Below, piece after piece: positions 18,549 through 32,735 of a stretch of DNA of 34,148 nucleotides. Source of the stretch: an uncultured Prevotellaceae bacterium (lineage in GTDB: Bacteria; Bacteroidota; Bacteroidia; Bacteroidales; Bacteroidaceae); the NCBI GenBank assembly GCA_902769705.1, contig CACXPX010000033.1:1-34148 (forward strand), read 5' to 3'. Numbering within the stretch: position 1 is the stretch's first letter; the number at the start of each line of letters is the position of its first letter. Under the pieces are notes generated by a model, which was not told where the DNA came from, made no database searches, and saw only the letters and a program-made list of their open reading frames with translations. Made by a program: the position numbers and the translations under genes.

Positions 18549-18834
18549 TATGCTTTGAAACAGGCACTTGCCGCATATGAATTCTTCATTAGTATGCTTT
18601 AGTGTAGGAAAATAATTTATTTTACTGAGGAAAATAATTTATTTTACTGAGGAAAATAATTTATTTTATCGAGTAAAATAATTTATTTTACATTGCAAAA
18701 TAATTTATTTTACTTTACCAAACGATACCTATAACAACGTCAAAGGGCATCTTTGACGACATTAGAGGATAGCTTTGACAACATTAAAAGATGTCTTTGA
18801 CAATGCCAAAGGAGATTTCTGATGCACAGAGAGG
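18549..18834 (+). repeat. 22-bp tandem array, locus 2 (13 units in register)
   Basis: Dividing the DNA into 22-bp blocks from 18549 gives 13 blocks without any indel. Block 1 starts TATGCTTTGA, block 3 TATGCTTTAGTG; blocks 4-8 each start ATTTATTTTA; blocks 10-12 carry CTTTGAC at positions 5-11 and end in (A/T)(A/T)AGAGG-like sequence. Across the boundaries of blocks 3-8 an invariant 16-base core AAAATAATTTATTTTA occurs five times (18609, 18631, 18653, 18675, 18697) with 6-base variable spacers. A 14th degenerate block may run to 18856. No ORF. Confidence 0.85.
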
Positions 18835-19457: not shown

Positions 19458-19516
19458 CACGCACGCAAAACAATCATGAGTTAACAGAAAACAAAATAAA
19501 AAACCGACATACACTA

Positions 19517-25474: not shown

Positions 25475-28400
25475 CTATGGTTGAACCTCCAATCGGTATT
25501 CGATGTTGACATTTCCGTCTTGTCTGAAATCATCCGTCATCACCTCTGTGGGACCCACCCACGTTACTGGACAATCCGTCTCCGCTGTTATTTTCGTGTA
25601 CCAGCCAGGATTCTTCACCTCCGTATATACGGTGCCTTCCAGATGATAGGTCCCCTTTCCTTTGAATTGGTAGACATACTTGTCTTTGACACGATTGACT
25701 GTGAATGTTCCCTCCGCTTGATGGTGGATGTCACCCTCCAGCAATTCGTTCCACAGCAAGGTTATATTTCCATCAAACCAATTGGCCATATCTGCATAGA
25801 AGTGTATCAAATCTTCTATGGTCGCCAGCACATTGTGATAAGAAGTGTTCAGTTTGAAGGTGCCGCTACCAGTATTAGTCCCAGTGTCGAAGGTGCCAGT
25901 CATGGTCAGTCCGGCGATGTTGCTCTTAATGTCGCCAGTGAGCGAGGGCACTACACCATCGTTGGCCTTGAAAGCATCCACGATGTCTTGATACCAATCT
26001 TCGAAGAAGGCGCCATACTTTTGCCCTTCCACTTCCGTTACGATATCATCAATAAGTTCTGGATCTGGACCCCAGCATGACACGACGCCCATGCCATACA
26101 TTTTGTATATAGGGAGCTCAACAGAATCGGGATCCATCTTGATGTTGTAGTTCTTGCCTTGTCCCTCGATTGCCTGGCCACCCGTATCAAGGTCGATTGT
26201 GACCACCTGCAGACCTGTGCCACCAGGAACCTCGAAGTCGTAAGTGGCACGTTCCGTTCCTTCATCGTCTATCAGTGTCAGTTGACTCTTTATCTTGTGT
26301 CTGATGAGTGAATAGCGGGTGAAGGCACCCATTTTGGCTGTTCCATCCTTGTCAATGGTCTTCTGCCAGTTTTGAGGATCTTTGATGCTGTCGGGTATTT
26401 CACTGTAGCGAATGGTCCACCCGGCATACTGCGATGTCTCACCGTCCTCGCACGACGAATCGATGATTTTCAGTCCCAGATACGAGTTCATCCATTCAGA
26501 ATATTTCTTCACCCTTTGGCTGTACTCCCTGGCAGCTTTGGCGGCAATTTTGTTTTTGATAGCCTCGAACACGCTGACCAATTCTCCATTCATCAGTTCG
26601 GCGAAATATTCTTCAGTTATCTGCTTCTGAATTGACTCATACGGATATTGGTAGGAGGTCATCGAACGTGAGTCGGCCTCAGCCATACACATGGTGAACA
26701 CATCGGTAGGTTCTTCCCAGTAGGCCTCGCAATAGCGGCGCACCGACTGTTCGATGTATGCATCAAGCCTTTCCTTTGTCATACCGTGCTTGTTGAACGC
26801 AGGATAGAAGTAGTTGAACCACTCTTCTGTGTTGCGGTATTTCGAACCATACTGCGGTCCCACCAGGGCTCGTCCTTGTTCGCTATAGTAGAGGTTGTAT
26901 GCCTTGCGAAGCAGATCCTTGATGGATTTCTGCACTTTTGTGCCCAGTTTTTCCAGCGCCACACCAATGAATGCGCTTAATCCCATCGATGCAGACATGA
27001 CGCTGGAGCCAATGACGGATGACGCTTGTGCGCTCGTGATGCTGAGGATGGCTTTCAATGAATTGGAGGCCACACCGATGTCGTCGCCTTGAATGGAAGC
27101 ATTGGCGCAATCGAGGATCGTGGCGTAAGTACCCAGATAGCCCACTATGTTGGTCAGTTCTCCGATACCTTCTGTGGAGAAGCCCAGCGAACTGAGCAGG
27201 TTGTGTCCACCATCAATGCCGACGCTTTGCCAGAAGTTGTAGTCGTCGCGCCAAGCCTGCACGGCACCCTCCTCCGGGTCTTTGTTCGAGACTATTTTGT
27301 ACAACACCTCGAGCATTCCCGTCAAGTCATACGCGCCAGGAGTCATGTCATAATCCATGTCAATCATGGTGCGCCAGGTGTCGTTGTTAACCGTGGAGAA
27401 CACGGAGAAATACGACAGGTGGTCGGTTATGATGACTACGGCATCCTGCTCTTCGTCGTAGCTTGCCAGCACAGGCTCCCATTCGCCTGTTTCCTCATTG
27501 AAGTAGGCGGCATGAACCTTCTCATTTTCTCCAATGCTGTAGGGAACCACAATCTTTGCCGTGCCACTCAGTTCATGCACGTTGTTGGAGAGGCTGATAT
27601 CAATGCCGATGCCGCGTGTAACACCCTCGATGACATCGGGTGTCAGCACCGCGTTGCGGATGCACAGTTGCAGGTCGCTGCTGATGGTAGTTGGGTCAAA
27701 GGTCACCGAGCATTTCTGCGCTTCGGCAGTGAGTATCGAGTCGTTGAGTTCGAACACCTCAGCATTCTCATAGACAAAGCCGTTTATCCACGTGATGCTG
27801 TCCACCAGCGCCACATTTGAGGTGAGGTCATCGCGGCCATTCAACCTCACCACCACTTCGTTTTGCTCTCCATCCTGCGCGATGCGTATGTCGCTCACTT
27901 GGCTCAGGGGAACGCTGGTACTCTTGTCTCCACGGTGCATCACCATGTAATATTCGCGGCCTTGGTCGGGCACAGGTTCATACTTCTGGTTATCCTTGAT
28001 GAAGAATCGCCGCCAGCCAGGTGCGTTGCGATAGAGTTCGGCAGTACCTTGTGGCACGTAGAGGGTTGGCTGTCTTTCTTTAAATATCTTGTCGTTGAAG
28101 GTAGCATCGGTAATGTCGGGCGGCACCACAGCGAGGCAAGTCAAGTTGTTCAGTCGTTCGCAGTTCGTGAATGCATCTTTCATCTCAATGACGGTGTTAG
28201 GGATGATGACGTTGAACGTCTCATGCTGAAGACTGTGAATGCTGCCAGGTTCCAGCTTCACTAAGTTGTCAGTAAAATACTCTCTGTAAATGTCATCATC
28301 TCCTAATGTCAAGGAATACCAAGATGTGCCATACATGGATGTGGTATAAGACTGCGGAAGTGTGACCACAAGGCTCGAACCGTCTTTGCTGAACAGCATT

Positions 28401-30277
28401 TTGCTATACTGGAGGTCAGGATGGATGCGAAAGCAGGGGCTTCCTTCTTCTACGATGAAAGCTTGAAGATTGGTGCCCTCAAATGCGTTTGGTGCAATCC
28501 GTTTCAAACTCGGGAAGACATGAAACAGCTTTACTGCCCTGTAATAGGTTTCTCCATTGTAAGTATAGGGAAGGTTTTCATCGGGGAAAGTGACTGCATA
28601 TAATGCCTGTCCCCCAATCTCTTTCAGACTTTTGAAGTGGGGTGACACGTTGAAAGAGCAGGAGGCGAACACACGGTAACCCAGTTTGGTGATGCACCCC
28701 AACCATTCTCCATCACCTGCTGAGGTCCCAGTTCCTCCTGCTTCGAAAGCCTCGTCGTCCACCTCGAAGCCAGGACTGCGGCTGATGATGTTTGAAAGGG
28801 AGCACATCATGAATGCCTTCTTGCCGATGCGTTTGACGGAGGCCCCGATGGTGAGGTGTTTGATCTTTGCCATTTGGAAGGCTCCATCGGGCACTTCCTC
28901 CATCTTGTCGCTGATGACGAGTGTGTCGATGGTGCTATAGATGAAGCAATACTGGTCAATTATCCTCACGTTTTCGCCGAGGTTCATTTTGCTGAAATGT
29001 CCTCTGCTGTAGAAAGCATTCTTGCGAATGCGTGTAACGGGATATTCCTGTCCTTCGTAGGTGATGGTGTTGGGAATGTTGATCTCAGTGCCATTCTGAC
29101 CACTCAACAGGTATGAAATGATATGCGCCTCACCGCTCTGTTGCAAGCCATATCTTATATTGTCAATCTCGATGATTTTAGTGTCGTAGGTGGGAATGAA
29201 GCCTGTAATAGCTACTCCTTTGGAATTAAATTGGTGTAAGGTTGATGGTTTATAAAAACCATCATAAGCACCTCCCCATCCGTAGTTGAAATGCAAGTAG
29301 TTATTGCTTGTATAGCCATCGCATACTAGCGCATGGTTGATTTTGTCGCCCGAACCACCAGAGTAGGGTACAGGATGCAACTCGTCGAGGTCTTTTTTGA
29401 TGATGGAAATCAACTGGTCTGCATCTTGAGGAGTATGAATATCACCTTGTTCGTAACTGAAATTATATGCTATTTCGTAAGTGCCAAAGTTGGATGAACT
29501 TCCTTCGGGTTGGTAATATGTTCCCATAGACTTGCCGATGTCCCTCATCAGATAGGCCACAGCTTGTGCTTGGTCAGCGTTGTATCCCGAAGCGTAGTTG
29601 TCGAGCATATTGTCCCAATCATAAACGTGGCCTGAAAAGTCCTCACCAGTGAATAATGCAGTCATATGGTCTTTCAATTGTCCTTGTGATTCCTTTGGCC
29701 ATTTGTAGTAGTTCATGATTTGGGCAAAGGCCGTTGGAACACAACCACTAGGGCATCCTGCAGGGCATAAGTTGTTGTAGGGTCCCCATTGGTTCCAAGT
29801 GGTGGTGAGTAGCGGGGCCACCACCACCGTTCCGATATCTTTCGCCTTGCGTGGCACCTTGGAGGCCAGAGAAGGGTTGCTTCGAAGCTGGTCGATCTCG
29901 TCCGTGTAGTTATCGAGCAGTTCTTTCAGTTGGATGGGAGCATCGTCGTAGTTGAACGAGCCGTGATCGCAATAACCGAGAATATCGTCCTGAGTGCCGC
30001 TCTCGCCGGAGACAATTACGAAACCCTGATTGTTGGCGAGGTTGATGACATACACATTGTCTTTTTCCTCGTCCACCTTCGAAGGTATGGCATGCGACAG
30101 TTGCGGAACCATTGCTTTTCTCGGTGCTCGGTAGCCCTTCACTTTAGAGAGGCCAGGCTGGCTGGCTGTGGCAAACTGCTGTGCTGCCTGCAACGCCTGT
30201 TCCACGCTGACGTCATCGGCCATCATGACATTGACCGAGAAGAGGAGAAGGGTCAAGAGAGTCAGTATCTTCTTCAT
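25475..30277 (-). CDS. Very large C10-family cysteine protease with BspA-like LRRs and a novel C-terminal region
   Basis: 1600 residues. Signal peptide about 1-20, then a streptopain-type propeptide (about 22-150, VEQALQAAQQFA ... NVYVINLANNQGFVIVSG). The C10 peptidase domain (about 155-365) has nucleophile C179 in GCPSGCVPTAFAQIMNYY and H315 in KINHALVCDGY, followed by LHFNYGWGG. BspA-type leucine-rich repeats (LRR_5) span about 405-765. A beta module at about 775-830 (YYMVMHRGDKSTSVPLSQV) and a domain ending HLSYFSVFSTV (about 840-962) follow. Residues about 985-1600 match nothing I know: a helical, Ala/Ser/Gly-rich hydrophobic stretch (about 1065-1110), then helical and finally beta-rich sequence. 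No T9SS tail is seen. Known interpain-like proteases are much shorter. Coupled by a 4-bp overlap to the gene before it. Confidence 0.92.
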   Translation of the reverse strand: MKKILTLLTLLLFSVNVMMADDVSVEQALQAAQQFATASQPGLSKVKGYRAPRKAMVPQLSHAIPSKVDEEKDNVYVINLANNQGFVIVSGESGTQDDILGYCDHGSFNYDDAPIQLKELLDNYTDEIDQLRSNPSLASKVPRKAKDIGTVVVAPLLTTTWNQWGPYNNLCPAGCPSGCVPTAFAQIMNYYKWPKESQGQLKDHMTALFTGEDFSGHVYDWDNMLDNYASGYNADQAQAVAYLMRDIGKSMGTYYQPEGSSSNFGTYEIAYNFSYEQGDIHTPQDADQLISIIKKDLDELHPVPYSGGSGDKINHALVCDGYTSNNYLHFNYGWGGAYDGFYKPSTLHQFNSKGVAITGFIPTYDTKIIEIDNIRYGLQQSGEAHIISYLLSGQNGTEINIPNTITYEGQEYPVTRIRKNAFYSRGHFSKMNLGENVRIIDQYCFIYSTIDTLVISDKMEEVPDGAFQMAKIKHLTIGASVKRIGKKAFMMCSLSNIISRSPGFEVDDEAFEAGGTGTSAGDGEWLGCITKLGYRVFASCSFNVSPHFKSLKEIGGQALYAVTFPDENLPYTYNGETYYRAVKLFHVFPSLKRIAPNAFEGTNLQAFIVEEGSPCFRIHPDLQYSKMLFSKDGSSLVVTLPQSYTTSMYGTSWYSLTLGDDDIYREYFTDNLVKLEPGSIHSLQHETFNVIIPNTVIEMKDAFTNCERLNNLTCLAVVPPDITDATFNDKIFKERQPTLYVPQGTAELYRNAPGWRRFFIKDNQKYEPVPDQGREYYMVMHRGDKSTSVPLSQVSDIRIAQDGEQNEVVVRLNGRDDLTSNVALVDSITWINGFVYENAEVFELNDSILTAEAQKCSVTFDPTTISSDLQLCIRNAVLTPDVIEGVTRGIGIDISLSNNVHELSGTAKIVVPYSIGENEKVHAAYFNEETGEWEPVLASYDEEQDAVVIITDHLSYFSVFSTVNNDTWRTMIDMDYDMTPGAYDLTGMLEVLYKIVSNKDPEEGAVQAWRDDYNFWQSVGIDGGHNLLSSLGFSTEGIGELTNIVGYLGTYATILDCANASIQGDDIGVASNSLKAILSITSAQASSVIGSSVMSASMGLSAFIGVALEKLGTKVQKSIKDLLRKAYNLYYSEQGRALVGPQYGSKYRNTEEWFNYFYPAFNKHGMTKERLDAYIEQSVRRYCEAYWEEPTDVFTMCMAEADSRSMTSYQYPYESIQKQITEEYFAELMNGELVSVFEAIKNKIAAKAAREYSQRVKKYSEWMNSYLGLKIIDSSCEDGETSQYAGWTIRYSEIPDSIKDPQNWQKTIDKDGTAKMGAFTRYSLIRHKIKSQLTLIDDEGTERATYDFEVPGGTGLQVVTIDLDTGGQAIEGQGKNYNIKMDPDSVELPIYKMYGMGVVSCWGPDPELIDDIVTEVEGQKYGAFFEDWYQDIVDAFKANDGVVPSLTGDIKSNIAGLTMTGTFDTGTNTGSGTFKLNTSYHNVLATIEDLIHFYADMANWFDGNITLLWNELLEGDIHHQAEGTFTVNRVKDKYVYQFKGKGTYHLEGTVYTEVKNPGWYTKITAETDCPVTWVGPTEVMTDDFRQDGNVNIEYRLEVQP

Positions 30278-30762
30278 GGCTTCTGGAATTTAAATGAGAA
30301 ACGGTTGGTCTTCACGATATAGATGTCTCTGCCCAGCATCTGCAAGGAGATCTCGGCACGTCCGTTGGAGTCGAGGCGCCATTGTCCCACTTTTGTACCC
30401 TTGATGCTGTAGAGCGTCACAGGAGCACCTGGCTGGCCTCCGCTGATGACGAGCGTTCCATTGTTGAAATAGAACTGCTCCTCGGGCATTTGAATGTCCT
30501 CGATGTGACTGACCGACCCTGTCCACTCCACATCGAACACCAGTTTCTTCAGCAAGTAGATGGGGTATTGCACAGTGGTCTTCGTGGTGGTCAGCAAGAG
30601 GTTGCTGCCACTGTAGGTTACTACAGGTTTCTCAGTAAAGGCAAACATGGCCACCTTTCCGTCCTTCTGGTGGATGGCAACGGCATTCTGGGCGTATGCC
30701 GTCAAGCCTATTCCTGATAGTATAAGGATGGCCATGATGGTAAGCATTCTTTTCTTATTCAT
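30274..30762 (-). CDS. Short secreted protein with T9SS-like C-terminal tail
   Basis: 162 residues. Signal peptide about 1-25 (ends AYAQ). A beta-rich module (about 26-78: VAIHQKDGKVAMFAF ... TVQYPIYLLKKLVFDVEW) is followed by a type A T9SS tail (about 100-162: GTLVISGGQPGAPVTLYSI, KGTKVGQWRLDSNGRAEISL, RDIYIVKTNRFSFKFQKP). First gene of the two-gene C10 protease operon; the stop overlaps the protease start by 4 bp. It could be a secretion partner, anchor or inhibitor of the protease; none of these is shown. It does not look like the known Spi-type inhibitors. Confidence 0.85.
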   Translation of the reverse strand: MNKKRMLTIMAILILSGIGLTAYAQNAVAIHQKDGKVAMFAFTEKPVVTYSGSNLLLTTTKTTVQYPIYLLKKLVFDVEWTGSVSHIEDIQMPEEQFYFNNGTLVISGGQPGAPVTLYSIKGTKVGQWRLDSNGRAEISLQMLGRDIYIVKTNRFSFKFQKP

Positions 30763-30833
30763 TTGGTTCGCGTTTTTGAGGTTTAGATGGATGCTCTTGG
30801 TTTTTGTGTTTCACAAGATATATGTTTCGATTG

Positions 30834-30841
30834 CAAATATA
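30834..30841 (-). promoter_or_regulatory. -7 element of the C10 protease operon
   Basis: The minus strand reads TATATTTG. Predicted start near 30827, a leader of about 65 nt. 30842-31012 is AT-rich with no other supported feature. Confidence 0.55.
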
Positions 30842-31012
30842 GTAAATAATGTTGAAACCTCCAAATTTCACACTCTCTAGTGCGCAAAAATTTGTTATTT
30901 TAACTTGAGCTCGATGAATTGAAATTTTCAAAAAAGTTTCTGGATAATAGTTCCATGTCCGCGAAGGGTGCATTCTTCTATTTGTAGCCTTTTTGAACTA
31001 ATAATTCAAACA

Positions 31013-31122
31013 ACATACACTAATATTATACTATCTTCTTATTATTCAGTATTTTAGCTCGTTTACAACATACACTAAACATACACTAAACATACATTTT
31101 ACCTACACTAAACATACACAAG
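31013..31122 (+). repeat. Left arm: 11-bp repeat ACATACACTAA
   Basis: One isolated exact copy at 31013-31023, then five consecutive 11-bp units at 31068-31122 (two exact; the others read ACATACATTTT, ACCTACACTAA, ACATACACAAG). The isolated copy starts exactly 55 bp (5 x 11) before the array. The unit is the reverse complement of the right-arm unit. Confidence 0.9.
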
Positions 31123-31177
31123 ATGTTTTCTGTGTTCTATATTCTTGTTTCCTATTCGCTAGATGCATATTCTAAGG

Positions 31178-31397
31178 GTGTCAGAGATATGCTTTGAGTG
31201 TGTCAGAGCTATGCTTTGAGTGTGTCAGAGCTATGCTTTGAGCGTGTCAGAGCTATGCTTTGAGCGTGTCAGAGCTATGCTTTGAGCGTGTCAGAGCTAT
31301 GCTTTGAGCGTGTCAGAGCTGTCAGAGCTATGCTTTGAGCGTGTCAGATGTATGCTCTGAGCGCATTAGAAGCATGCTTTGAGCGTGTCAGATGTAT
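31178..31397 (+). repeat. 22-bp tandem array, locus 3 (about ten units)
   Basis: The unit is GTGTCAGAGCT followed by ATGCTTTGAGC. Units start at 31178, 31200, 31222, 31244, 31266, 31288, 31310, 31341, 31363 and 31385. Units 3-6 are identical; unit 7 carries an internal 9-base duplication of GTCAGAGCT (31 bp in all); unit 9 is divergent (GCATTAGAAGC then ATGCTTTGAGC); unit 10 is partial. A degenerate unit may precede at 31156. No spacers, no ORF of note. Confidence 0.95.
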
Positions 31398-31415
31398 AAG
31401 ATAGCGGAAAGGCGG

Positions 31416-31547
31416 TTTAGTGTATGTTTGGTGTATGTCTGGTGTATGTTTAGTGTATGTTTAGTGTATGTTTAGTGTATGTTTAGTGTATGTACAATTT
31501 TTTGGAAATACCTTTGTTTTGTTGGAATTCCAAGAATTTAGTGTATG
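31416..31547 (+). repeat. Right arm: 11-bp repeat TTTAGTGTATG
   Basis: Seven consecutive 11-bp units at 31416-31492 (five exact; the second and third read TTTGGTGTATG and TCTGGTGTATG), then one isolated exact copy at 31537-31547. The isolated copy starts exactly 55 bp after the last array unit starts, mirroring the left arm. 31548-31680 shows nothing further that I can support. Confidence 0.9.
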
Positions 31548-31680
31548 TATTTTGATTTCACTACTTTTTCAGACAATTATATTTCATCGAACTCACGTTA
31601 ACTAATTGAAAAAAAACAAACAAATTCGTATTCAGGTTAGCTTTTTCTGCGTCTAAAGGGTATAACTATAAAAAGACGTG

Positions 31681-32160
31681 ATGGAAAGACAAATCATCCA
31701 ACGGCTGTTCAAGCAGCACTATGCCAAAATGCTCAGGGTGGCACGCACCATCCTCTACGACGAGCAGGAGAGCAAAGATGTGGTCAGCGACATCTTTGAG
31801 AGTCTGCTCTGGGGACAAACCGTCATCATGCCCGACACCGAGGAGCACTACCTGCTGACATGCGTTCGCAACCAGTGTCTGAAACGTGTCCGTCATCAGG
31901 AAATGAGACTCCGCACGGAGGCTGCTATGGCAGCAGAAAGGGCTGAAGACGAAGAAGACGACGAGCGCACGGCAGATATCGTCGAGTTCGTGGTCAACCA
32001 TCTCACGGAACAAGAGCAGCGCATCTTCCACCTCCGTTTCACCGGAGGGTATAGCTACGAGGAGATAGCCTCTACAGAAGGCATCAGCCGCGTGGCGGTA
32101 TGGAAACATCTTTCCCACGCCTTGAAAGAAATCAGAAACCGTTTTAATCCGAAAGCATGA
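31681..32160 (+). CDS. ECF-type RNA polymerase sigma factor
   Basis: 159 residues from the ATG at 31681; an in-frame GTG just before it (31678) is less likely. Region sigma-2 (about 4-65: LFKQHYAKMLRVARTILYDE, SKDVVSDIFESLLWG) and region sigma-4 (about 108-152: LTEQEQRIFHLRFTGGYSYE, EIASTEGISRVAVWKHLSHA) are clear, with no other domains, joined by an acidic linker (AERAEDEEDDERTAD). Such factors direct polymerase to envelope-function genes in response to outside signals. Coupled by a 4-bp overlap to the anti-sigma gene. No TAnnTTTG promoter is seen upstream. Confidence 0.93.
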   Translation: MERQIIQRLFKQHYAKMLRVARTILYDEQESKDVVSDIFESLLWGQTVIMPDTEEHYLLTCVRNQCLKRVRHQEMRLRTEAAMAAERAEDEEDDERTADIVEFVVNHLTEQEQRIFHLRFTGGYSYEEIASTEGISRVAVWKHLSHALKEIRNRFNPKA

Positions 32161-32735
32161 TGAAACCAACAGACCCCAACAAGCAGCTTTACCGCGACAT
32201 GCAGGAAGAGCCCGAAAAGTATTCCGACCAGGAGTTAGAGGCCATGATGGACGAGGTTGACCAAATGGCCGACGCAGAAGAAGCATGGCAGCAGTTCTGT
32301 CAGCAACATATGCCCCCCGCAAACCCCATGCATACGTGGCGTAAGATGGCCGCCATTCTCATCAGCATCATAACGATATCGGGCATTGCCTTTGCGGCAG
32401 TTCACTTTGTGCGCAACCATGAAGGGCGGCCTGCCGAGACAGAACCGCAACCCACAACTGTTGAAGCACGGACAGCTGATGCCGGCAAACAGCCTGCCGA
32501 CACGACGGCCATCGCGCAGCCCGTGGTCTTCGACAACGTGACGCTGGACAGCATCCTTCCCCAGATTGCACGCCACTATGGCTACACGGTCGTCTTCCGC
32601 AACGAGCAGCCAAAATCGCTGCGCCTGTTCCTCACATGGAATCCGCAGGACTCCATTCAGAAAGTGACGGAAAAAATGAATCTCTTCGAGCAATTCCACA
32701 TCGTGCTCGATGAACAAACCATCATCGTTGAGTAG
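32157..32735 (+). CDS. FecR-like anti-sigma factor lacking the FecR domain
   Basis: 192 residues. The cytoplasmic N-terminus (1-60) is acidic and would bind the sigma factor. One membrane helix lies at about 63-84 (KMAAILISIITISGIAFAAV). A short Pro/Thr-rich linker leads to a C-terminal domain (about 122-192: VVFDNVTLDSILPQIARHYG, YTVVFRNEQPKSLRLFLTWN) like DUF4974, the secretin/STN-type fold that ends FecR proteins. The usual central FecR domain is missing, so it is shorter than the common 300-plus residues. Start overlaps the sigma stop (ATGA). Three bases separate it from the receptor gene. Confidence 0.85.
   Translation: MMKPTDPNKQLYRDMQEEPEKYSDQELEAMMDEVDQMADAEEAWQQFCQQHMPPANPMHTWRKMAAILISIITISGIAFAAVHFVRNHEGRPAETEPQPTTVEARTADAGKQPADTTAIAQPVVFDNVTLDSILPQIARHYGYTVVFRNEQPKSLRLFLTWNPQDSIQKVTEKMNLFEQFHIVLDEQTIIVE

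What the first reader, a model, noticed from the sequence alone, without database searches (positions are those of the whole stretch)
31013..31547. Composite element: 22-bp array enclosed by inverted 11-bp arrays with mirror-symmetric spacing
The central array is flanked on the left by ACATACACTAA units and on the right by their reverse complement, with period 11, half of the central period. On each side one extra exact 11-mer lies apart from its array, and on both sides the start-to-start distance is exactly 55 bp. The gap between left array and central array (31123-31177) is also 55 bp. A 535-bp structure with this symmetry could fold as a giant hairpin, serve as paired binding platforms looping to one another, or be the body of a non-autonomous mobile element.
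Basis: seen in the sequence. Interest (0 to 1): 0.85.

Follow-up and report, generated by a model that had tools for sequence, protein, structure and literature searches.

The report
Mirror-image phased repeat element in Prevotella
A short stretch of non-coding DNA, repeated at five unrelated places in this bacterium and present in some related species, is built like a mirror with its parts set at about whole turns of the DNA helix, which suggests the ends of a small mobile element, or a docking platform, gripped by a protein that is not yet known.

Summary
In the window's genome, 31 of 32 exact ACATACACTAA copies lie in five dispersed intergenic clusters, + boxes left and - boxes right. The outer-box distance is 55 bp on both sides in all five, except one 56. 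The two spacers of a copy are unrelated (27-41% identical), yet each is conserved between copies (86%, 77%): length is kept without shared sequence, which fits protein binding better than a hairpin. Relatives keep the plan with other sequences: of 107 stretches from a scan of bacterial genomes, 43 have converging array pairs and 1 a diverging pair; left and right boxes co-vary (0 of 2000 permutations); the centre has a 22-bp period in 10 of 16 genomes with centres of 100 bp or more. Outer spacing is clear in some relatives and unresolved in the largest subfamily. The genome's only two IS982-type remnants found by DNA search both abut copies, the window's included. Best reading: a non-autonomous, MITE-like element whose mirrored, phased boxes bind a protein supplied in trans. 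Mobility rests on dispersal, one presence/absence site and the IS982 remnants; the protein is unknown.

The parts
30900..30920 (+). possible degenerate left terminal inverted repeat of IS982 type (TTAACTTGAGCTCGATGAATT)
   Evidence: 18 of 21 letters as in the IS at G000:C21, counted by eye; place. The score of the whole 210-bp left flank is weak (12 of 300 shuffles reach it)
30949..31012 (+). conserved outer left flank (CCGCGAAGGGTGCATT..), shared with the other four copies
   Evidence: alignment; match from 30949
31013..31023 (+). outer left box ACATACACTAA
31024..31067 (+). left spacer, 44 bp; same length in all five copies, 86% identical between copies, unrelated to the right spacer
31068..31122 (+). 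left array, five 11-bp units
31123..31177 (+). 55-bp joint; no gap in it in the alignment of the five copies; its end looks like a degenerate first 22-mer
   Evidence: by eye
31178..31392 (+). central array, 22-bp period (GTGTCAGAGCTATGCTTTGAGC), broken once near 31310
31417..31493 (-). right array, seven 11-bp units, inverted
31494..31537 (-). right spacer, 44 bp, with an imperfect dyad TTGGAA..TTCCAA
   Evidence: dyad by eye
31538..31548 (-). outer right box ACATACACTAA
31558..31606 (+). right end of an IS982-family element (IS 991-1039, 86% identical); terminal repeat 31583-31601
   Evidence: (E 7e-9)

Best explanation
A dispersed, non-autonomous, MITE-like element. Its two ends are mirror-image platforms: an outer 11-bp box and an inner array of the same box, in inverted orientation, about a whole number of helical turns apart. 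A DNA-binding protein supplied in trans (a transposase or recombinase, or an architectural protein) is inferred to bind the boxes on one face of the helix and to bring the ends together over a central, often 22-bp-periodic array. In the window's genome two of five copies carry remnants of an IS982-family insertion sequence at their edges; an IS982 of that type with an open transposase frame, at C21, could have moved them. Shown: dispersal, inverted design, fixed spacing in the five own copies, left-right co-variation across genomes, IS982 remnants at two copies, one presence/absence site in a relative. Inferred: that a protein binds the boxes, and that it or the IS982 transposase moves the element.
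For: Five copies with unrelated neighbours and no preferred gene orientation (2 divergent, 2 convergent, 1 co-directional, from open reading frames). Pairwise matches of 70-87% identity by piece, spacers included. Outer distances 55/55 in four copies and 55/56 in one; spacers equal in length but unrelated, while the flank just outside the left box varies (44, 45, 46, 46, 48 bp). Same plan in other genomes: of the 107 genome contigs stretches, 43 have a converging pair of arrays, 1 a diverging pair, 63 no pair (many of the 43 come from the same few genomes). Left and right boxes share variants (0.767 against 0.462 permuted; 0 of 2000). One site where G190 carries a ~690-bp block holding the element and G242 has a clean junction, with TAATAAA on both sides of the block. 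IS982 DNA search of the own genome: three places only, the IS itself and two remnants, both abutting copies; in C38 the left piece (IS 13-80, E 4e-10) and right piece (IS 793-829, E 1e-4) are collinear around the element. C21 IS: 1025 bp, IS982 transposase (254 bits, cut-off 130), perfect 7-bp duplication TAAATTA.
Against: No autonomous copy found: centres of the 51 elements read are 10-808 bp and their longest ATG frame is 51 aa. Only two of five own copies show significant IS982 matches; the window's left end is weak and it has no target duplication. In other species IS982-type ends sit inside the centre (L140 with duplication TAATTTA, L141; L222, L263), so nesting goes both ways and IS982 may simply favour such AT-rich DNA. 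IS982 ends are not clearly enriched beside the G190-type copies (2 of 44 ends against 3 of 153 control stretches). The presence/absence block also contains another repeat module and is AT-rich; the same locus differs from G242 at a second place ~200 bp on, and G143 and G103 hold other DNA at the junction. Six further elements searched for an empty site gave no verdict (L145, L147, L129, L255, L125, L134). Some sites are occupied in both G190 and G143 (L121/L126, L142/L128), so copies can be long-lived. No binding protein was identified.
Confidence: 0.55

Rival explanations
1. A chromosomal architectural site, not a mobile element: a protein polymerises along 11- and 22-bp phased boxes and loops or wraps the DNA (nucleoid organisation, segregation or insulation between genes). 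Copies spread by rare recombination.
For: Parts of the own copies lie at multiples of 11 bp; outer distances elsewhere fall mainly at 52-56, 67-68 and 76 bp. 22-bp periodicity is widespread in the own genome's non-coding DNA: 24 of 44 non-coding arrays in a 400-kb sample have period 22, 0 of 20 coding arrays do; 37 of 114 non-coding tiles have 22 as top lag. Subirana and Messeguer propose a nucleoid protein for constant-size repeats (PMC8161180, passages). Some sites are shared by two species.
Against: The element is absent beside the same sigma-factor gene in relatives: no arrays in 21 of 21 loci, and no match to window 29001-31611 in them. IS982 remnants at two copies; one presence/absence site.
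Confidence: 0.25
2. DNA or RNA structure: the inverted arrays fold into a long hairpin or cruciform that terminates transcription or blocks polymerases.
For: Calculated DNA fold z -8.4. Left and right boxes co-vary.
Against: Spacers are not complementary (27-41%) yet equal in length; the arrays have unequal unit numbers (3 and 6 by the rule in the window). Two of five copies lie between divergent genes, where no terminator is needed.
Confidence: 0.1
3. Neutral decay products of IS982-type elements plus slippage-grown repeats; the mirror design has no function.
For: IS982 remnants at two copies; slippage-type arrays are common in this genome.
Against: Equal spacer lengths held over diverged, unrelated sequences; the plan recurs in other genomes with other 22-mers.
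Confidence: 0.1

Closest known systems
BrickBuilt and MITE464/PgRS of Porphyromonas gingivalis (Klein et al. 2015, PMC4596501; abstract and two sections read)
   Same: Intergenic, dispersed, non-coding elements with an internal array of constant period (23 or 41 nt); in PgRS the segments flanking the array are themselves repetitive; ends resemble resident insertion sequences.
   Different: BrickBuilt's leader and tail differ from each other and are not repetitive; the sections read describe no mirrored 11-bp arrays, helically fixed outer boxes or co-variation across species; BrickBuilt ends are nearest ISPg1 and ISPg9.
MITE239 and MITE700 of P. gingivalis, with ends matching ISPg3 (PMC4596501), and ISPi1 of P. 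intermedia (Naito et al. 2015, PMC4755523; abstract and passages)
   Same: Terminal repeat TCGAACTCACGT, printed for MITE700, is the one at window 31587-31598; the stretch between the window's two IS982-type ends is about 700 bp; ISPi1, closely related to ISPg3, makes 7-bp duplications as the C21 IS does.
   Different: Klein et al. file ISPg3 under IS5; the C21 transposase scores as IS982. I saw no sequence of MITE700, so whether it carries 11-bp arrays is unknown.
Tandem repeats of constant size and variable sequence (Subirana and Messeguer 2021, PMC8161180, abstract and passages; their 2020 paper is not held)
   Same: Arrays of one size with unrelated sequences (they report 20-23 nt in many groups); protein polymerisation on DNA proposed.
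   Different: The passages seen describe arrays, not a frame of inverted 11-bp arrays and outer boxes around them.
Transposon ends with several transposase sites (Tn7, Mu) and the parC centromere of plasmid R1 (recalled, no call)
   Same: Several short sites at each end, or clusters of 11-bp repeats, bound cooperatively.
   Different: No transposase, partition gene or sequence relationship was found for the boxes here.

Membership tests
MITE | short, no coding capacity, several dispersed intergenic copies | tested here: met
   five copies, about 440-700 bp, intergenic; no open frame of 90 aa or more inside them
MITE | terminal inverted repeats | tested here: inconclusive
   window copy: IS982-type ends, left one degenerate; C38 has one end; C27, C29, C30 no significant match. 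G190-type relatives have long terminal repeats (about 45 bp, by eye)
MITE | target-site duplication or empty site | tested here: inconclusive
   one presence/absence site in relatives with a 7-bp repeat; none for the window copy; six other sites without verdict
MITE | ends shared with a resident autonomous element | tested here: inconclusive
   C21 IS982 against C33 and C38; 2 of 5 copies, the other 3 without significant match
IS982 derivative | both IS ends, same orientation, around the element | tested here: inconclusive
   C38: left end and an internal piece, collinear; C33: right end plus a weak left end
BrickBuilt / PgRS | sequence relationship | not tested
   no P. gingivalis sequence was fetched
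constant-size, variable-sequence tandem repeats | one period, many unrelated units, non-coding | tested here: met
   central array and the own-genome sample
CRISPR array | repeats separated by unique spacers | tested here: not met
   units are head to tail without spacers

The most novel reading that the evidence does not exclude
A new kind of 'helical-lattice' element: geometry is conserved (11-bp boxes, 22-bp core, outer boxes at about 5, 6 or 7 turns, mirrored at both ends) while most sequence turns over together within each species. That would mean one family of proteins that reads phase and symmetry first and co-evolves with its box, and that mobilises or organises these elements across Prevotella.
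Probability: 0.3. Interest if true: 0.85.

Novelty: new variant of a known kind. Interest (0 to 1): 0.63.

Why it matters
Repeats of constant size and variable sequence are an open puzzle in bacterial genomes. Here such a repeat sits in a defined, mirror-symmetric frame that recurs across species, so spacing, phase and box sequence can be changed one at a time and tested. If the element is mobile, it is a compact model of how transposon ends are recognised through geometry; if it is architectural, it is a candidate organising site in a common gut and rumen genus.

Tried and rejected
Known RNA families: at the gathering threshold only a tRNA in the window. CRISPR: no spacers. Regulatory element of the neighbouring sigma-factor gene: in 21 relatives' loci with that gene, homology to the window starts at 31612-31635 (31785 in one) and no arrays are present; the loci hold at most about 1.5 kb upstream. 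Autonomous copy: no paired arrays with a transposase-sized centre among those read; for 14 one-sided arrays the inner open frames were listed but not searched against families; L263 has IS982 pieces beside its array. Viral contigs: of 74 stretches, eight have converging pairs 194-216 bp apart; the two of these that I read, and a related one, have another sequence (GTACACTAAGT type) and were set aside. Transposase remnant by protein comparison: nothing beyond the DNA matches. Empty sites: see evidence against; no empty site was found for the own copies (searched flanks of C33 and C38). Literature: searches showed no description of this composite in their listings; the library is partial and not all listed papers were opened.

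Limits: 60 hand-chosen loci were given; 9 had no converging pair by its rule (L144, the presence/absence case, among them); two places are listed twice (L083 = L135, L081 = L125). G131 and UBA2444 share a contig length of 62,580 and are taken as one genome. Outer distances that do not fit the classes: G183 59 and 56; G380 left 66; G347 right 30; L066 right 33; L272 and L273 one side each; G159 left none. Outer boxes with two mismatches (both sides in RUG063, one side each in RGIG7796 and in L236 and L274) are weak taken singly. For the G190/G143/G103/G242 group and its kin (RUG14400, RGIG6879) the finder gave no consistent outer distance, because the outer copy there (CCTACATACCTACA) differs by two or more letters. 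Genomes compared are related, so they are not fully independent. The counts 3 of 80, 27 of 398 and 13 of 398 include the window's own genome.

Full report
Check. Outer box 31013, left array from 31068, right array to 31493, outer box 31538: both start-to-start distances are 55 bp. Matches to the 11-mer exceed all 100 shuffles.

Genome-wide test. In the window's genome (3.6 Mb, 72 contigs) the exact 11-mer occurs 32 times; 31 fall in five clusters on contigs 27, 29, 30, 33 (the window) and 38, each with + units left and - units right. One is a stray in the window at 19507. The reversed control has one hit. The copies align with each other, spacers included, with matches of 70-87% identity by piece. 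They lie between unrelated genes: two divergent, two convergent and one co-directional pair, read from open frames. None holds an open frame of 90 aa or more.

Geometry without sequence. The outer-box distance is 55 and 55 in four copies and 55 and 56 in the fifth. Left spacers are 86% alike between copies and right spacers 77%, but within a copy the left spacer and the inverted right spacer share only 27-41%. The flank just outside the left box varies in length (44, 45, 46, 46, 48 bp), whereas nine of ten spacers are 44 bp and one is 45. So the length is held although left and right sequences differ. That is what a protein complex spanning the box and the array on one face of the helix would need, and not what a hairpin would need. 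The fold calculation does give a strong hairpin, as any inverted arrays must.

Relatives. DNA similarity finds matches in 27 of 398 genomes of the genus, and the array pattern in 13 of 398, own genome included; the reversed pattern has no hit in the genomes listed. A scan of 84,980 species gives 107 stretches: 43 have a converging pair of arrays, one (a Saprospiraceae contig) a diverging pair, 63 no pair. By the titles shown, the paired ones are Prevotella, Prevotellaceae or uncultured Bacteroidales, except one contig labelled Clostridia (L287); eight titles were not shown to me. Many pairs come from the same few genomes. Box letters differ between species (ACATACACTAA, ACCTACACTAA, GCATACACTAA, ATATACACTAA and others), but left and right agree within an element (0.767 against 0.462, 0 of 2000 permutations, 20 labels for 19 genomes). 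Outer distances of 52-56 on both sides are seen in the own genome, G018, G395, G133, UBA2444 and RUG063, of 67-68 in RGIG5162 (two of four copies on both sides) and RGIG7796, and of 76 in RUG571, near 5, 6 and 7 turns; some of these boxes have two mismatches. Other copies fit on one side only or not at all, and in the largest subfamily (G190, G143, G103, G242 and kin) the finder was inconclusive; the exceptions are listed under Tried and rejected.

Centre. Of 16 genomes whose elements have centres of at least 100 bp, 10 have 22 as the strongest lag between 15 and 30: own, G395, G131, G380, G347, G133, RGIG5162, RUG063, RUG571 and RGIG7796; Tandem Repeats Finder calls a 22-bp array in nine of them (not in G131). 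The six without it (G190, G143, G103, G242, RUG14400, RGIG6879) look like one subfamily with AT-rich centres. The 22-mers are mostly unrelated: 3 of 55 pairs pass p 0.02, about one being expected by chance, and only own against G395 is clear. Outside the elements, 2 of 28 non-coding tiles of other species have top lag 22. In the own genome 37 of 114 do, so there the central array alone is unremarkable.

Mobility. In G190 a block of about 690 bp, holding the element and a second array module, is missing from the same gene junction in G242, and TAATAAA stands on both sides. This is one AT-rich site; the locus differs from G242 again about 200 bp on, and G143 and G103 hold other DNA there. Six other elements gave no verdict, and some sites are occupied in both G190 and G143. 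In the own genome the IS982-family element at C21 (ends ACGTGAGTTCGACGAA, duplication TAAATTA) has only two other DNA matches, and both abut copies of the element. In C38 its left end and an internal piece flank the element collinearly (E 4e-10 and 1e-4). In the window its right end starts 10 bp after the outer right box (E 7e-9), with a weak left end at 30900. In other species the nesting is reversed: IS982-type ends lie in the centre (L140, L141, L222, L263). The IS982 link is therefore good evidence that these two copies have been tied to an IS982, but not that all copies travel with it.

Mechanism. Shown: a dispersed, conserved, mirror-symmetric design with fixed spacing. Inferred: a box-binding protein supplied in trans bridges the two ends; movement by IS982 or by an unknown enzyme. 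Naming it a MITE is supported by size, lack of genes and dispersal, and is inconclusive on ends and target duplication. The closest published things are the P. gingivalis MITEs, two with minisatellites and two with ISPg3-type ends like this one (PMC4596501; ISPi1 in PMC4755523), and the constant-size repeats of Subirana and Messeguer (PMC8161180). I found no account of the composite in the searches listed.

Noticed in passing
own genome, 20 samples of 20 kb (L409-L428); window 18598-18714 and 18751-18803: Non-coding DNA of this genome is rich in 22-bp tandem arrays with many unrelated units: 24 of 44 non-coding arrays against 0 of 20 coding ones; in five other genomes of the genus 5 of 38 non-coding. 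No preference for gene orientation (12 co-directional, 8 divergent, 7 convergent). Dyad symmetry of the units is only slightly above shuffles (6.0 against 5.4 pairs, n 26).
   Followed up: partly
flanks of many of L121-L147 (G190, G143, G103): A second module of 11-bp repeats (ACGGACTTACA / CCCATGTAAGT, also inverted) lies beside many of the G190-type elements (by eye).
   Followed up: no
L263 (Prevotella sp. UBA4268), 123-376 and 1278-1838: Two copies of an IS982 close to the one at C21, both lacking the same internal stretch (IS 139-543); one abuts an 11-bp array.
   Followed up: partly
L148, L164, L170, L179, L184, L188, L189, L201 (IMG/VR contigs): Viral contigs carry converging 11-bp-phased arrays 194-216 bp apart; L148 and L184, the two read, are of another sequence (GTACACTAAGT type).
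   Followed up: no
L240, 5011-5107 (Capnocytophaga bilenii): One-sided array of nine 11-bp units.
   Followed up: no
window 25475-30277 and 31678-32735: Left of the element, beyond a 162-aa gene without Pfam match: a large peptidase C10 protein with LRR_5 and Inhibitor_I69 domains. Right: a sigma-70-type factor and a FecR_C protein.
   Followed up: no
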